A stretch of 64,000 nt of DNA, taken from Anaerolineaceae bacterium (GTDB taxonomy: Bacteria; Chloroflexota; Anaerolineae; Anaerolineales; Anaerolineaceae). Every line of letters starts with the position of its first letter. Position 1 is the first letter of the stretch. This document shows, piece after piece, positions 8,929-15,547 of this stretch. Under the pieces are notes generated by a model, which saw only the letters and a list, made by a program, of their open reading frames with translations, was not told where the DNA came from and made no database searches. The stretch spans positions 1 through 64,000 of the forward strand of contig PABH01000014.1 of the NCBI GenBank assembly GCA_002702705.1. Reading direction: 5' to 3'. The translations under genes and the position numbers were made by a program.

Positions 8929-9393
8929 ATGCCCCCAAAATTTTCATTACAAAATGTACTCGATATCCGAAAAAGCAAAGTGGAAGGCCTGGAAGTGGAA
9001 TTAGGCAAACTAATCGCTGCTAAACAACAGATGGAAGAATTGTTAACCGCTTTGTATGAAAACAGAACCAGTTTATTGGAACAACTTTTTTTGGAACAAC
9101 AAGGTGAGATGGATTTATTCAATTTATCCATGCTGCGGGCCAATATCGTTGCAACCGATGAACGTATTCAACAGGTAATGAAATCATTGGCAGAGCAGGA
9201 AATTAAAGTAGATAAAAAACGTCAGGAAGTTGTAATTGCCAAACAAGAGGAAGAAATGTTGGTGATCTTAAAAAACAAACAACATGACGTATTTATGAAA
9301 GAACAAGCCGAAAAAGAAGCCAAACAACAAGATGACATTTATATTTCGCAGGCATTCCGGCAACGTCAAGAGGAGAGCCGTTATCATGGATGA
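8929..9393 (+). CDS. fliJ: flagellar export protein FliJ
   Basis: 154 residues, nearly all helical with heptads and very rich in Glu, Gln and Lys, as expected for FliJ, the two-helix coiled coil that sits in the FliI hexamer like the gamma subunit of F1. The start [21 protein letters not shown] is the typical FliJ opening. Identity rests on this opening and on position directly after fliI; coiled coils are hard to assign by sequence alone. Confidence 0.85.
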
Positions 9394-9934
9394 AATTTTT
9401 GCAGCACAATTCCAAAAAGTAATCTATACCACCATGATGGAAATGATGCAGCGAATGCAGTCCACTTCCATCCAAAACCAAGCCGATCAGGGTTTTGATA
9501 ACCCCTATCTGAATGGCGTGGGTGGAAATTATGTCGGTGGTGGTGATTTTGAAAGTTTGATCCAGCAGGCTTCGATGAAATATGGTGTTGATTCAAACCT
9601 GGTGAAAGCCGTCATCAAAAATGAATCAAATTTTAATCCACAAGCTGTTTCCGGAGCAGGTGCAATTGGTTTAATGCAGTTGATGCCAGGAACCGCCGAA
9701 TGGTTAGGTGTAGAAAACCCATACGATCCCGCCCAAAATGTAGATGGCGGTGTGCGTTTTTTACAACAGTTGTTAAACCGGTACGACGGGAATATCCAAT
9801 TAGCTCTGGCTGCCTATAATGCCGGACCAGGTGCAGTGGATAAATACAATGGAATTCCACCCTATCAAGAAACACAAACCTATGTGCAGCGGGTGATCAG
9901 TACTTATCAATCCAATAGTCAGTGGAAAGGATAA
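9386..9934 (+). CDS. lytic transglycosylase, SLT domain, in flagellar operon
   Basis: 182 residues from the ATG at 9386 (GAGGAGAG upstream). A short helical lead of ~52 residues precedes an SLT/goose-lysozyme fold: [14 protein letters not shown] with the catalytic Glu at 80, then [13 protein letters not shown] and [20 protein letters not shown]. It would cut peptidoglycan so the rod can pass, the job of the muramidase half of FlgJ in proteobacteria. There is no signal peptide, so export through the flagellar apparatus is probable (inference). It overlaps fliJ by eight bases and flgB starts seven bases later, which ties it to rod assembly. Confidence 0.9.
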
Positions 9935-10354: not shown

Positions 10355-11542
10355 ATGGACTTAATGATTTTTTCAACCAGTAAACCTGCTTCAAATGGTG
10401 AAATATCCAAAAATTCCAATCCAAAAAAAGGGTCGGAAGTGGAGACAAACCCATTTGATAAGGTTTTACAACAGGAAGAAGAAAAGATGTCCTCAGAAGC
10501 GGAAGCTTTAATGCTGGCAATGTTGCAAAAACCTCAACCCGGAACAGTTTCGGATCAACCAAAGGCAACCCAAGGCGCAGAAAGTCAATTGGCGTCAGGA
10601 CTTTCGCCGAATGGTTTGGTCGAAACAACACAGGCGGTAGGTGATTTGGCAACGGTTCAGACAGCAGTCGTGACTGAGCAAGTAGATGATGTGGGAACAT
10701 CTCAATCGGCAATTTCAGACTTAATTTCAACGGAGGTGGATTTAGAAACCAATCAAAAAGCAGCAGAAACAAAAACAGTAAATCAAGAGACAGTAAAAAA
10801 TCAGGAAGGTAATGATCCTATCAGTTTTATGGAATTATCTTCGGAAGCAGTAGATTTGCAAGATGTGGAGATTGACCCAAAAACGATCAAAACTGAAGCG
10901 GAAAAACAACAGCGGGTCGATCAGGTTGCTAAATCGGTTGTTGATATGGAAGGTTCTGCAAAAGGGAAAGATATCAAAATTGATACCCAGGATGGACTTT
11001 CTCAGACTGAAACAACTACCCAGAAACCAGCGGAAACTGCTGCTAAGGAGATCGAATTTGCCAAAGTACAGGTTGATCAAATGACAAAATCAAACACGAT
11101 GAATGAGCCGGCCCGCATGGCGGAAGCTCTACCTCGTCAAACGATCAACCAGATGTCAGAACAGATTGAAATGCTGATCCAACAAGGTCGTTCCTCTCTG
11201 CGTTTGCAGTTATCCCCGGAGCACCTGGGACGCATCGATATCCGGCTGGTAAACAGTGGTCATGGTTTGGGAGTAACCGTTTTAACCGAACAGGCTGAAA
11301 CAGGAAAAATGTTAGAAGCACAGTTAGATCAGTTACGCCAGACTTTGCAGGATGCTGGTATTCAATTATCCCATTTGAATGTTGGGCAGCAATCCTCTGG
11401 CAGCAAAAATGCCTGGTTAATGCAAGACCATAAAACACGTTTTTTGACGAGGGCTTCGCAAGTTCAATTGGTTGGTGAACAAGAAGTTTCTCCTACGCCA
11501 ACTCGCTTGCGAACGGAAACCGGTGTTGATTACCGGATATAG
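10355..11542 (+). CDS. fliK: flagellar hook-length control protein FliK
   Basis: 395 residues. FliK is secreted during hook growth, measures its length, and flips FlhB to late-substrate export. The first ~255 residues are low-complexity, rich in Glu, Gln, Thr and Lys, as in FliK rulers. The C-terminal Flg_hook domain (about 265-350) has RSSLRLQLSPEHLGRIDIRL, HGLGVTVLTEQAETGKML and LRQTLQDAGIQLSHLNV, the core family pattern. Four bases separate it from flgB, and flgD follows. Confidence 0.9.
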   Translation: MDLMIFSTSKPASNGEISKNSNPKKGSEVETNPFDKVLQQEEEKMSSEAEALMLAMLQKPQPGTVSDQPKATQGAESQLASGLSPNGLVETTQAVGDLATVQTAVVTEQVDDVGTSQSAISDLISTEVDLETNQKAAETKTVNQETVKNQEGNDPISFMELSSEAVDLQDVEIDPKTIKTEAEKQQRVDQVAKSVVDMEGSAKGKDIKIDTQDGLSQTETTTQKPAETAAKEIEFAKVQVDQMTKSNTMNEPARMAEALPRQTINQMSEQIEMLIQQGRSSLRLQLSPEHLGRIDIRLVNSGHGLGVTVLTEQAETGKMLEAQLDQLRQTLQDAGIQLSHLNVGQQSSGSKNAWLMQDHKTRFLTRASQVQLVGEQEVSPTPTRLRTETGVDYRI

Positions 11543-11998: not shown

Positions 11999-12442
11999 AT
12001 GTCTGAGTCAGTTAATTTTGATCCTAAGAATCAACCAAACCGTGTTCAACGTCAAAATCAGACTTATGGACCGAACCGACCGATAGGCGTACCCCAACCT
12101 GGTGTGCCCAGCTTCAGCGAGACATTACAGCAGGCACAGGAAATTCGTTTCTCAAACCATGCCCAGCAGCGTATCGAGAAACGTCAGATCAACCTCGGTG
12201 AAAATGGAATGAATCGCCTGGCGCAAGCAGTTGAAAAAGCTGAGCAAAAAGGCGGAAAATCCTCATTGGTTTTGATGGATGATATGGCTTTTATTGTGAA
12301 TGTGCAGGAGCGGATGGTTGTAACCGCGATGGATTCCAAAGCACGTGGAAAAGGTGTCTTCACACAGATTGACACAGTCGTATTTGCAGATGAATCGGAA
12401 AAGTCAAATTCCGGCACATCTACTATTGAAAAATCAGCATAG
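11999..12442 (+). CDS. TIGR02530-type flagellar operon protein
   Basis: 147 residues. A polar N-terminal tail of ~45 residues leads to FSNHAQQRIEKRQINL, then LAQAVEKAEQKGGKSSLVLMDDMAFIVNV and VTAMDSKARGKGVFTQIDTVVF. This matches the small protein usually found between flgD and flgE in Firmicutes-type flagellar operons (TIGR02530). Its molecular role is not established; a link to hook assembly follows from position only. It starts four bases after flgD. Confidence 0.82.
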   Translation: MSESVNFDPKNQPNRVQRQNQTYGPNRPIGVPQPGVPSFSETLQQAQEIRFSNHAQQRIEKRQINLGENGMNRLAQAVEKAEQKGGKSSLVLMDDMAFIVNVQERMVVTAMDSKARGKGVFTQIDTVVFADESEKSNSGTSTIEKSA

Positions 12443-13768: not shown

Positions 13769-13798
13769 GGGGAGCAGATCTAATTTGATTTGCTCCCC
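13769..13798 (+). terminator. hairpin between flgE and the second FliK-like gene
   Basis: GGGGAGCAGATC (13769-13780) pairs with GATTTGCTCCCC (13787-13798), 12 bp with one G-T pair and a six-base loop. Only TT follows, so partial termination that lowers expression of the next two genes is plausible. Confidence 0.55.
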
Positions 13799-13814: not shown

Positions 13815-15167
13815 ATGTGTGCCATGATGACCACTGGTGCGGTAACGACTGCTCCGGTAGAAGCCCCCAATCTAAATAACCTGAACTTAAAACTTTACCA
13901 GCGTATTACAGCGCAGGTAATGGAGGTTCGTGGTGTGGAGGCAACGCTGGCAATTGAAGGCACACCAGTGGTGGCTAAAATGCCGAGTGCTCAGCAGGCA
14001 GCGGATCTCTTACAGCAAGGTTCTGCACAATTTATTGTGACTGGTCTATCAGGGGATGGCATTATCTTAAGGTTGGTTCGACAAGACCAGCAAACTGTTA
14101 ATCCTTCAATTATTCAACCCAGAGATTTGGCAACCCGTTTATTAGAAGCGCTTGGTCTGGCGAAATCTAGTGAAACAATGACCTTAGCCCAATCTGCTTT
14201 AAAGCAAGGTGTTTTAATTACCCCACATACCTTGTCCGAACTGGAAACTGCATTACAGCAGTTAGGGGAATGGGGTGAAGAAGAAGCGGATTTAGCAGTG
14301 GCTTTAAAAGCGGCCGGTTTACCTGTAACCCCTGGCAGTATTCAGATGATCAGTCAAAAACCGGATTTGATAGGGGATGCAATTGCAAAACTTTTGGTAC
14401 AGCTTCAATCTGCTTCAGGTAATAACCAGGCAACCCCTCAATTAACCCAGCTTTTGGCTGAAAGTGTCCGTTTATTAGAAAAATCGATGTTAAAATGGCA
14501 GCAGCCCGCTGATGGATTGGCTCAAGATTTGGAATTTATTGGAAAATTATTAGGCCGTTCATTTGAAAATGAACTGTCTCAACAAATTAAAGAAAACCAA
14601 CAAGCAGGAAAACAAGAAAGTTTGTCCGTGTTGGGAAAACTCCAACAATCTTTACAAAAAAATGGCCAACAGCGGTTAGCAGGTGAAGTGGAAAAATTCA
14701 TCGATACTGTGCGTCATAATCACTTAATGAACACAAAATCCGACCCGGCTAACGGGCGTGGTCATTGGGCACAGTTGGATATTCCGCTCACAATTAAAAC
14801 AGGGCAGGCACAGCAGCAACCGATACCTGCCCATATCCGTATTGCAAAACGGGAAAGTGGTGGGGAAGAAAAAATTGATCCGGAATATACCCGTCTGGTA
14901 ATCCAGGTCGAAATAGCGCCTGGTGTGCCAATGGAAGTGGATTTGGCTTTTGCCAGTGGACAGGTTCAGGCTGATGTCACAGTTCCGAATGGAACGATTG
15001 AACAGTTGGCAATTTCGGAATGGCCAGGATTAAATGAGGGATTGGTAGCGTTGGGCTATCAGGTAAAAACCAGCCGGGTGGATATCGGTAAAACCCGTTT
15101 GCCCGGTGGTTTGCCGGAAGTCAATAAGCGCACGCGACCTTTCCAGTCTGTTGATATGGCGGTATAA
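13815..15167 (+). CDS. second FliK-like protein (YlqG type), partner of FlhX
   Basis: 450 residues. The N-terminal ~90 residues form a small beta domain with ITAQVMEVRGVEATLAIEG and FIVTGLSGDGIILRLV. A helical, Gln/Leu-rich middle follows, and the last ~130 residues (HWAQLDIPLTIKTGQ, then LVIQVEIAPGVPMEVDLAFA and ISEWPGLNEGLVALGYQV) resemble the FliK Flg_hook fold with a later beta-alpha motif. Such proteins are encoded beside a free FlhB C-terminal domain, as in the Bacillus ylqG-ylqH pair, and here flhX starts one base after the stop. A role in tuning export is inference. GTGAGG precedes the ATG; two further ATGs lie at 13824 and 13827. Confidence 0.65.
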   Translation: MCAMMTTGAVTTAPVEAPNLNNLNLKLYQRITAQVMEVRGVEATLAIEGTPVVAKMPSAQQAADLLQQGSAQFIVTGLSGDGIILRLVRQDQQTVNPSIIQPRDLATRLLEALGLAKSSETMTLAQSALKQGVLITPHTLSELETALQQLGEWGEEEADLAVALKAAGLPVTPGSIQMISQKPDLIGDAIAKLLVQLQSASGNNQATPQLTQLLAESVRLLEKSMLKWQQPADGLAQDLEFIGKLLGRSFENELSQQIKENQQAGKQESLSVLGKLQQSLQKNGQQRLAGEVEKFIDTVRHNHLMNTKSDPANGRGHWAQLDIPLTIKTGQAQQQPIPAHIRIAKRESGGEEKIDPEYTRLVIQVEIAPGVPMEVDLAFASGQVQADVTVPNGTIEQLAISEWPGLNEGLVALGYQVKTSRVDIGKTRLPGGLPEVNKRTRPFQSVDMAV

Positions 15168-15168
15168 G

Positions 15169-15468
15169 ATGGTATTTAAACGGGTCGATTTAACAAAAAA
15201 ATCACCTCAGCGAAATCAAGCCGCAGCCCTAGCTTATATTCCTGATCAGGATAATGCGCCCAAAGTGGTTGCCAGCGGACAGGGTGTGCTTGCGGAGAAA
15301 ATCATCGCGCTTGCAAAAGAAAATAATATTCCAATTCATGAAGATCCTTTATTAACAGCAGCTCTATCTGCTGTGGATGTAGGGGGTGAAATACCTCCTG
15401 AATTATATCGAGTTGTGGCGGAAGTATTAGCCTACGTTTTTCGTATTCGGGATCAATATAAACCTTAA
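15169..15468 (+). CDS. stand-alone FlhB C-terminal domain protein (FlhX/YlqH type)
   Basis: 99 residues. It matches the cytoplasmic domain of FlhB: AALAYIPDQDNAPKVVASGQG, then EKIIALAKENNIPIHEDPLLTAAL and GGEIPPELYRVVAEVLAYVFRI. The FlhB TM region is absent, and the self-cleaving NPTH motif is replaced by NQAA, so autocleavage should not occur. In FlhB this domain sets the switch from rod/hook to filament export; a free copy could replace the cleaved fragment or bind FliK-like proteins. The ATG sits one base after the upstream stop, so the two are translated together. Confidence 0.85.
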   Translation: MVFKRVDLTKKSPQRNQAAALAYIPDQDNAPKVVASGQGVLAEKIIALAKENNIPIHEDPLLTAALSAVDVGGEIPPELYRVVAEVLAYVFRIRDQYKP

Positions 15469-15516: not shown

Positions 15517-15547
15517 GAGGCAGCCTTATGAGCGGTAAGGCTGCCTC
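15517..15547 (+). terminator. terminator of the flagellar cluster
   Basis: GAGGCAGCCTTA (15517-15528) and TAAGGCTGCCTC (15536-15547) form a perfect 12-bp stem with a seven-base loop, followed by ATTATTGTTT. It separates the flagellar cluster from the convergent transporter gene. Confidence 0.8.

What the first reader, a model, noticed from the sequence alone, without database searches (positions are those of the whole stretch)
13815..15468. A second FliK-like protein coupled to a free FlhB C-terminal domain that lacks NPTH
One base separates the two genes. Seen: the small protein aligns by eye with the FlhB cytoplasmic domain but has NQAA where NPTH cleaves, and no TM part; the larger one ends in a FliK-like fold. 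A true FliK is also present at 10355. Known: FliK acts on the FlhB domain to switch export, and Bacillus has a similar ylqG-ylqH pair of unclear role. Inference: this is a second, cleavage-free switch module, perhaps tuning a different substrate class or export state, and it lies behind a leaky terminator, so it may be made in low amounts.
Basis: partly seen in the sequence, partly recalled or inferred. Interest (0 to 1): 0.6.

Follow-up and report, generated by a model that had tools for sequence, protein, structure and literature searches.

The report
Spare flagellar export-switch gene pair
Two neighbouring genes at the end of a flagellar operon encode a free, pre-cut copy of the switch domain of the flagellar export gate and a protein shaped to act on it but apparently not to be exported; the pair is old and widespread, and its job in the cell is still untested.

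Summary
Confirmed and extended. ORF2 (15169-15468, 99 aa) is a free FlhB C-terminal domain (FlhX/YlqH type). ORF1 (13815-15167, 450 aa) ends in a FliK-type switch (T3S4) domain. The genome also has a complete FlhB with NPTH and a true FliK, so this is not a split FlhB. FlhX proteins from nine phyla form one clade apart from FlhB (99/95) and share a one-residue deletion. The upstream ORF matches Flg_hook in 69 of 79 loci. In Evansella (Bacillaceae) the pair sits at the ylqG-ylqH position.

FliK2 does not look like a second ruler. It has an S1/OB-like N-domain and a helical middle, and mostly lacks the FxxxΦ export signal (2 of 15 have it, against 9 of 10 FliK1). It keeps FliK's switching tail, [ILVFM][DN]xx[AVI]-COOH (71 of 82). 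FlhX keeps the early-substrate pocket (66 of 83) but lacks the cleavage motif and the hydrophobic stretch before it (0 of 83).

Best reading: FlhX is a ready-made replacement for FlhB's cleaved domain, which a 2026 study reports as an ejectable early-mode lock; FliK2 is its cytoplasmic partner. Identity is firm, mechanism inferred (about 0.45). My fusion model of the complex failed. 'NQAA' is misaligned (PQRN); the 'terminator' is a hairpin without a T tract.

The parts
13815..15167 (+). fliK2: 450-aa protein with a FliK-type switch (T3S4) domain, not a canonical FliK
13866..14090 (+). FliK2 residues 18-92: predicted S1/OB-type fold
   Evidence: VIA-align rows over about residues 18-92, Z 5.3-6.7, such as ribosomal protein S1 and exosome subunits; middling Z, fold only
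14118..14726 (+). FliK2 residues 102-304: predicted helical middle part
   Evidence: AF2 model
14763..15086 (+). FliK2 residues 317-424: T3S4 (FliK C-terminal) fold
   Evidence: the homologous segment of L006 was modelled at pLDDT block means 83-98, with 5cuk and 2rrl as the top two VIA rows
15150..15164 (+). FliK2 last five residues VDMAV, matching the FliK tail motif [ILVFM][DN]xx[AVI]
   Evidence: 71 of 82 distinct FliK2; 10 of 10 FliK1 tails of the same kind; E. coli FliK ends GVDIFA
15169..15468 (+). flhX: free FlhB C-terminal domain, 99 aa, no NPTH, no membrane part
15205..15216 (+). FlhX residues 13-16 (PQRN) at the position of the FlhB cleavage motif NPTH
15256..15261 (+). FlhX A30-P31, equivalent to Salmonella FlhB A286-P287 of the early-substrate pocket
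   Evidence: pocket residues from PMC9307174
15418..15429 (+). FlhX A84 to L87, equivalent to FlhB A341 and L344 of the pocket
13769..13798 (+). RNA hairpin between flgE and fliK2, conserved in position but not in sequence
   Evidence: z -5.05; z <= -3 in 11 of 13 measurable loci, window included
15517..15547 (+). terminator-like hairpin after flhX
   Evidence: 13-pair stem
10355..11542 (+). fliK1, the canonical FliK, with FxxxΦ motif FDKVL at residues 34-38 and tail VDYRI (context)

Best explanation
The pair is the Chloroflexota form of a widespread two-gene module, FliK2-FlhX (the YlqG-YlqH type). Shown by sequence: FlhX is a free FlhB C-terminal domain that needs no cleavage, keeps the early-substrate docking pocket, lacks the hydrophobic stretch before the NPTH site, and belongs to one clade separate from FlhB. 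FliK2 carries a FliK-type switch domain and the FliK switching tail, but no recognisable FxxxΦ export signal and, by prediction, no disordered ruler. Inferred: FlhX takes the place of FlhB's own cleaved C-domain at export gates that lack it, supplying early (rod/hook) docking and the early-mode lock. FliK2 stays in the cytoplasm, binds FlhX through its T3S4 domain and tail, and controls its loading or removal. The cell could thus hold or restore early mode without new FlhB cleavage.
For: Linkage: the ORF upstream of flhX matches Flg_hook at E <= 0.01 in 69 of 79 loci tested from the named-genome scan. In 400 Chloroflexota the FliK2 profile finds FliK2 in 15 of 19 genomes with FlhX and in 0 of 27 with FlhB but no FlhX (Fisher 7.6e-9); a closer look at the other four FlhX loci found a FliK2-like ORF upstream in each. 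FlhX: NP[T/V/L/I]H in 46 of 47 FlhB and 0 of 83 FlhX at the aligned site; pocket within the functional set of PMC9307174 in 66 of 83; residues 261-263 before NPTH all hydrophobic in 41 of 41 FlhB and 0 of 83 FlhX; one clade, 99/95, one change in 100% of 200 bootstrap trees. FliK2: T3S4 fold; tail motif in 71 of 82, and in 17 of 19 whose flhX starts 15 nt or more downstream, so it is not only a ribosome-binding site for flhX; FxxxΦ in the first 100 residues in 2 of 15 against 9 of 10 FliK1, Fisher 2.4e-4. Literature: FlhB_CCD is an ejectable early-mode lock and early-substrate docking site, with the last five FliK residues proposed to act on it (PMC13344023, abstract and sections 7, 11, 14, 15). 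H. pylori HP1575 is reported as a 'spare part' when FlhB_CC is deleted (title only, in the reference lists of PMC3040844 and PMC2923134).
Against: No direct evidence of binding. The AF2 read-through fusion of a relative's T3S4 domain and FlhX left roughly the first 70 of 99 FlhX residues under pLDDT 60 and gave no usable interface. A mirror-tree check gave no excess co-evolution: FliK2-FlhX rho 0.41, FliK2-FlhB 0.42, FlhX-FlhB 0.36. 27 of 44 FlhB-bearing Chloroflexota in the sample lack FlhX, so flagellar gene sets do without the pair. 17 of 83 FlhX fall outside the functional pocket set. 11 of 82 FliK2 lack the tail motif, betaproteobacterial ones among them. In G255 the two proteins were found on different contigs. 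The family profile found no FliK in a sequence search of the PDB, hhalign of FliK2 against FliK1 gave only 22% probability (E 0.00096), and no Foldseek hit passes E 0.001. One FliK1 of ten (L058) also lacks FxxxΦ.
Confidence: 0.45

Rival explanations
1. Decoy or timer: FlhX stays in the cytoplasm and titrates FliK1's tail or early substrates, delaying the switch; FliK2 regulates how much free FlhX is available.
For: FlhX keeps the pocket. FliK1 and FliK2 share the same tail motif, so both could bind the same site.
Against: A pure decoy would not explain the H. pylori 'spare part' result (title only). The hairpin after flgE suggests low output, which would make a poor sink (output unmeasured).
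Confidence: 0.2
2. Second switch for a separate substrate class or export state.
For: A second FliK-like and FlhB-C-like set in a genome with FliK1 and FlhB.
Against: Only one full FlhB in the genome. FlhX keeps the early pocket. FliK2 has no FxxxΦ export signal.
Confidence: 0.15
3. A non-flagellar role; the resemblance to FlhB and FliK is historical.
For: In Evansella the pair lies among housekeeping genes.
Against: FlhX occurs with FlhB: 17 of 19 FlhX genomes in the phylum sample have FlhB, both exceptions under 90% complete; 28 of 30 FlhX genomes of the wider sample have an FlhB match over at least 310 of 335 positions. In the window the pair lies directly after flgE in the fli/flg cluster.
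Confidence: 0.1
4. A broken-off or decaying piece of FlhB.
For: ORF2 covers only PF01312 positions 262-335.
Against: Complete FlhB with NPTH elsewhere in the genome. One conserved clade across nine phyla with a shared deletion.
Confidence: 0.02

Closest known systems
FlhX / YlqH / HP1575 (FlhB C-terminal homologues; NCBIfam TIGR00789 flhB_rel)
   Same: Free FlhB C-domain without membrane part or NPTH; in one clade with the Bacillaceae copy at the ylqH position; flhX-fliK is named as lying outside the main cluster in Nitratiruptor (PMC9321776, passage).
   Different: 94.3 bits, below the TIGR00789 cut-off of 117.35. HP1575 itself was not compared here.
YlqG (B. subtilis gene upstream of ylqH; recalled) and its Evansella equivalent L123 3367-4983
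   Same: Found by the FliK2 profile (E 1.7e-13), directly upstream of flhX.
   Different: Lies among housekeeping genes there, in the fli/flg cluster here.
FliK, hook-length ruler and switch catalyst (PF02120)
   Same: T3S4 fold and the C-terminal switching tail.
   Different: No FxxxΦ signal in the window's FliK2; folded S1/OB and helical N-part predicted where a ruler would be; the PExLG-type motif of FliK1 is absent from the Chloroflexota FliK2 aligned.
FlhB / SctU C-terminal domain
   Same: Sequence family and early-substrate pocket.
   Different: No NPTH, no hydrophobic stretch before it, one-residue deletion at FlhB 318; Arg315 (36 of 41 FlhB) is not among the five commonest residues of FlhX.

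Membership tests
FlhX clade (free FlhB C-domains) | Free C-domain of about 80-110 aa without FlhB's membrane part | tested here: met
   99 aa, PF01312 262-335 only
FlhX clade (free FlhB C-domains) | No NPTH-type cleavage motif at the aligned site | tested here: met
   PQRN in the window; 0 of 83
FlhX clade (free FlhB C-domains) | Groups with other FlhX and not with FlhB in a tree | tested here: met
   83 FlhX on one side, 40 FlhB on the other, 99/95; only 78 columns
FlhX clade (free FlhB C-domains) | Replaces FlhB_CC in vivo | not testable with these tools
   needs genetics
TIGR00789 (flhB_rel) | Curated score of 117.35 bits | tested here: not met
   94.3 bits, E 3.8e-27, though the best-scoring NCBIfam model
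FlhB (TIGR00328) | N-terminal membrane domain and NPTH | tested here: not met
FliK (PF02120) | Curated Flg_hook score of 29.8 bits | tested here: not met
   window protein 14.9 bits; relatives in five genomes reach it
FliK (PF02120) | T3S4 switch fold | tested here: met
   Foldseek 5cuk prob 1.00 (E 0.011), 2rrl prob 0.99 (E 0.079); 5cuk and 2rrl top two VIA rows, Z 4.5 and 4.3, for a relative's domain
FliK (PF02120) | C-terminal switching tail | tested here: met
   VDMAV; 71 of 82 FliK2
FliK (PF02120) | Early export signal FxxxΦ near the N-terminus | tested here: not met
   absent in the window's FliK2; present in 2 of 15 FliK2 and 9 of 10 FliK1
FliK (PF02120) | Disordered ruler region | tested here: not met
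   predicted folded OB and helical parts, most residues pLDDT 70-90; a prediction, not a measurement
YlqG | Homology to the gene upstream of flhX at the ylqG position | tested here: met
   Evansella locus L123; B. subtilis YlqG itself not compared

The most novel reading that the evidence does not exclude
A resettable export switch working by strand exchange. FlhX lacks the hydrophobic stretch (a strand in FlhB structures, recalled) that in FlhB precedes the cleavage site. The FliK2 tail, a short alternating hydrophobic stretch, donates that strand and keeps FlhX folded in the cytoplasm; FlhX is then handed to the FlhB stump of a gate that has lost its own C-domain, restoring early mode. By the same logic FliK1's tail ejects FlhB's own C-domain by strand displacement. 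The switch, described as irreversible in Salmonella, would be reversible in bacteria that carry the pair.
Probability: 0.12. Interest if true: 0.85.

Novelty: new member of a known kind. Interest (0 to 1): 0.5.

Why it matters
How FliK flips the export gate was a long-open question, and a 2026 study answers it with physical removal of FlhB's cleaved C-domain. A natural, old, free copy of exactly that domain, encoded next to a protein that has FliK's switch parts but apparently lacks its ruler and export signal, is a ready genetic test of the ejection model: can the lock be reloaded? FlhX is present in many Bacillota of the scan, and B. subtilis (ylqG-ylqH, recalled) is a standard laboratory organism.

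Tried and rejected
Split or decayed FlhB: rejected, complete flhB with NPTH elsewhere. Chance pairing: rejected. Tail motif as a mere Shine-Dalgarno for flhX: rejected, since 17 of 19 FliK2 with a gap of 15 nt or more keep it and ten FliK1 have it too. Link of the pair to FlgM: FlgM is found in genomes with and without the pair, no discrimination. Mirror-tree co-evolution: no excess. AF2 of a T3S4-FlhX fusion: FlhX half failed, complex inconclusive; a first alignment for it (A4) put FliK rows on the FlhX half and was dropped for A5. FliK in the PDB by sequence profile: none. Natural FliK2-FlhX fusions: long open frames around eight phylum-sample FlhX were checked; in each the FliK2-like ORF, where present, is in another frame, so no fusion. 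A nucleic-acid role for the S1-type N-domain was considered and is untested; a fold shows no function. Paper searches, all in the held open-access library, ten in total: FlhX+FlhB, YlqH+FlhB (12), HP1575 (13), FlhB+spare part+Helicobacter (26), YlqG+YlqH (28, none), FliK+FlhB+C-terminal+last five residues (50), FlhB+gate recognition motif+hydrophobic+FliK (51), FlhB+A286+P287 (57), FlhB-like+FliK (94, none), flagell+Chloroflexi+FlhB+FliK (95). Subscription papers are mostly not covered.

Limits: the named-genome scan used one peptide pattern, IPPELY[ARS]VV, and kept the best 80 of 89, so conservation at those residues is by selection; the tree rests on 78 columns; many loci are MAG contigs and related, so counts and P values are not independent. 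Six of 47 FlhB without exact NPTH were left out of the FlhX/FlhB alignment (41 used) and one more short FlhB row out of the tree (40 used). FlhX were reduced from 96 to 83 distinct. Of the 80 scan loci, L125 has no upstream sequence; L061, whose upstream ORF is seryl-tRNA synthetase, is counted in the 79 but was dropped from the tail count; L087 and L098 were re-read in the frame found by the profile. The 44, 19 and 27 of the phylum sample were counted by hand: FlhX means a PF01312 match to the last positions only; G144 and G271 C182 were taken as FlhB fragments, G320 and G362 left out. The FliK2 search of the 27 used the first-look A2 profile only, less sensitive than the closer look at the four.

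Full report
Observation. ORF1 (13815-15167, 450 aa) and ORF2 (15169-15468, 99 aa) lie one base apart. They end a run of fli/flg genes on the + strand (gene names read from the ORFs, mostly by recalled resemblance) and are followed by a terminator-like hairpin at 15517-15547. ORF2 is an FlhB C-domain: PF01312 262-335 at E 6.5e-21, best NCBIfam model TIGR00789 at E 3.8e-27 but under its cut-off, PDB FlhB chains down to E 4.4e-17.

The genome. The own genome (5.89 Mb, 74 contigs) holds one other PF01312 gene, a complete FlhB with NPTH, and one Flg_hook match, fliK1. So ORF2 is not the missing half of FlhB.

FliK2. Alone, the window protein is below the Flg_hook cut-off, but all 15 members of its family alignment match Flg_hook at E <= 0.1 and relatives in five genomes reach the cut-off. 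The AF2 model (mean pLDDT 74.7, pTM 0.61) has a beta domain at 30-87, helices at 102-304 and a C-terminal beta-alpha domain at 317-424. Foldseek ranks the PscP T3S4 domain first (5cuk, prob 1.00, E 0.011) and FliK-C 14th (2rrl, prob 0.99, E 0.079). The N-domain resembles S1/OB folds, Z 5.3-6.7. For a relative's T3S4 domain, 5cuk and 2rrl are the top two of 992 chains by VIA-align, Z 4.5 and 4.3. Against: a PDB sequence-profile search found no FliK and hhalign with FliK1 gave 22%.

Not a ruler. After trimming to the first Met, 9 of 10 FliK1 carry F-x-x-x-hydrophobic in the first 100 residues, each with one copy at residues 23-37; FliK2 has it in 2 of 15, both inside the OB region (Fisher 2.4e-4). 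This motif is the early-substrate signal for FlhB docking (PMC10965912 passage; PMC8983047 passages). FliK2 is therefore probably not an early export substrate; this is inference from a short motif.

The tail. The last five residues of Salmonella FliK are important for switching (PMC10965912 passage; PMC13344023 section 14). E. coli FliK ends GVDIFA. The ten Chloroflexota FliK1 checked end hydrophobic-D-x-x-[VIA]. Of 82 distinct FliK2, 71 end in [ILVFM][DN]xx[AVI]; the same pattern occurs at 311 of 47001 internal positions. Because this codon stretch can double as a ribosome-binding site for flhX, I looked at 19 pairs with a gap of 15 nt or more: 17 keep the motif.

FlhX against FlhB. In an alignment of 83 FlhX and 41 FlhB, FlhX has a deletion at FlhB 318 in 83 of 83 and Asp at 310 in 74, where FlhB has mostly Asn (34 of 41). 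NP[T/V/L/I]H is present in 46 of 47 FlhB and in no FlhX at that site; one FlhX has a chance NPLH in a loop. Residues 261-263 before it are all hydrophobic in 41 of 41 FlhB and 0 of 83 FlhX. The substrate pocket (Salmonella A286, P287, A341, L344; PMC9307174 passages) is within the functional residue set in 66 of 83 FlhX and 39 of 41 FlhB. The tree puts FlhX and FlhB on two sides of one branch (99/95). The FlhX rows come from nine named phyla; this argues for one old origin, on 78 columns only.

Distribution. Among 101 relatives, FlhX is found in 16 genomes, all with FliK2; FliK2 is in 17 (the extra one, G059, is cut off at a contig end); three genomes with FlhB have neither. Among 400 Chloroflexota, 44 have FlhB over most of its length and 17 of these have FlhX; the FliK2 profile finds FliK2 in 15 of 19 FlhX genomes and in none of the 27 FlhB genomes without FlhX. 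A closer look at the other four FlhX loci (G200, G267, G380, G394) found a FliK2-like ORF upstream in each, E 3.8e-11 to 5e-48 with the wider profile; in G255, conversely, the two lie on different contigs and no FliK2 stands in the stretch read beside flhX. Thirty genomes of the wider sample, chosen because they have FlhX, include 28 with FlhB over at least 310 of 335 positions, one with it in two pieces and one without; 25 of 30 have two or more Flg_hook matches. Of 80 scan loci, 79 gave an upstream ORF to test; 69 match Flg_hook at E <= 0.01 and one is seryl-tRNA synthetase. In 14 of 15 near relatives measured, the window included, the two genes are -4 to 14 nt apart.

Expression. The flgE-fliK2 gap holds a hairpin (z -5.05). 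In 13 loci with a gap of at least 20 nt measured among the near relatives, window included, 11 have z <= -3, with different stem sequences; two more had no flgE end found and two had too short a gap. This fits a device that lowers read-through or protects the flgE message; neither is shown.

Mechanism. Chevance et al. 2026 (PMC13344023; abstract, sections 7, 11, 14, 15 and passages seen) report that FlhB's cleaved C-domain holds the gate in early mode, is the early docking site, and is lost in a FliK-dependent way, the last five FliK residues being proposed to act on it. The main text does not contain the word FlhX. H. pylori HP1575 is reported as a spare part for a deleted FlhB_CC (title only). 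Put together: FlhX is most likely a replaceable lock and docking domain, and FliK2 its cytoplasmic handler. The identity of the parts is shown; the binding, loading and reset steps are inferred. My complex model failed and co-evolution gave nothing.

Verdict. A well-supported member of a known but little-characterised module, with distinguishing features: no FxxxΦ signal, S1/OB-like domain, conserved switching tail, lost stretch before the cleavage site, kept pocket. I saw no description of these features for the pair in what I read from the ten paper searches listed, which cover open-access papers only.

Noticed in passing
window 13769-13798: Strong hairpin between flgE and fliK2; 11 of 13 loci measured (window included) have one at the same place with unrelated stem sequences.
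   Followed up: partly
window 11999-12442: ORF of 147 aa between flgD and flgE with no Pfam match at E 0.001.
   Followed up: no
window 9332-9934: SLT transglycosylase gene between fliJ and flgB.
   Followed up: no
L038 (FlhB of G074): The one FlhB of 47 without an NP[T/V/L/I]H match; its genome also lacks the pair.
   Followed up: no
L016 1345-2502: FliK2 of G065 appears to lack the N-terminal S1/OB domain and is 296 nt away from flhX.
   Followed up: no
L019 and L021: FliK2 of G062 is split over two contigs, the first continuing into an unrelated-looking sequence; possibly a chimeric contig.
   Followed up: no
G126 C1:3166441-3166659: Second FlhX-like match in the Evansella genome, away from the ylqG-ylqH position.
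   Followed up: no
L061 3621-5276: flhX directly after a seryl-tRNA synthetase-like ORF, without a FliK2 neighbour.
   Followed up: no
L173 (G255 C551:4000-6500): flhX without a FliK2-like ORF in the stretch read, while FliK2 was found on contig C237 of the same genome.
   Followed up: partly
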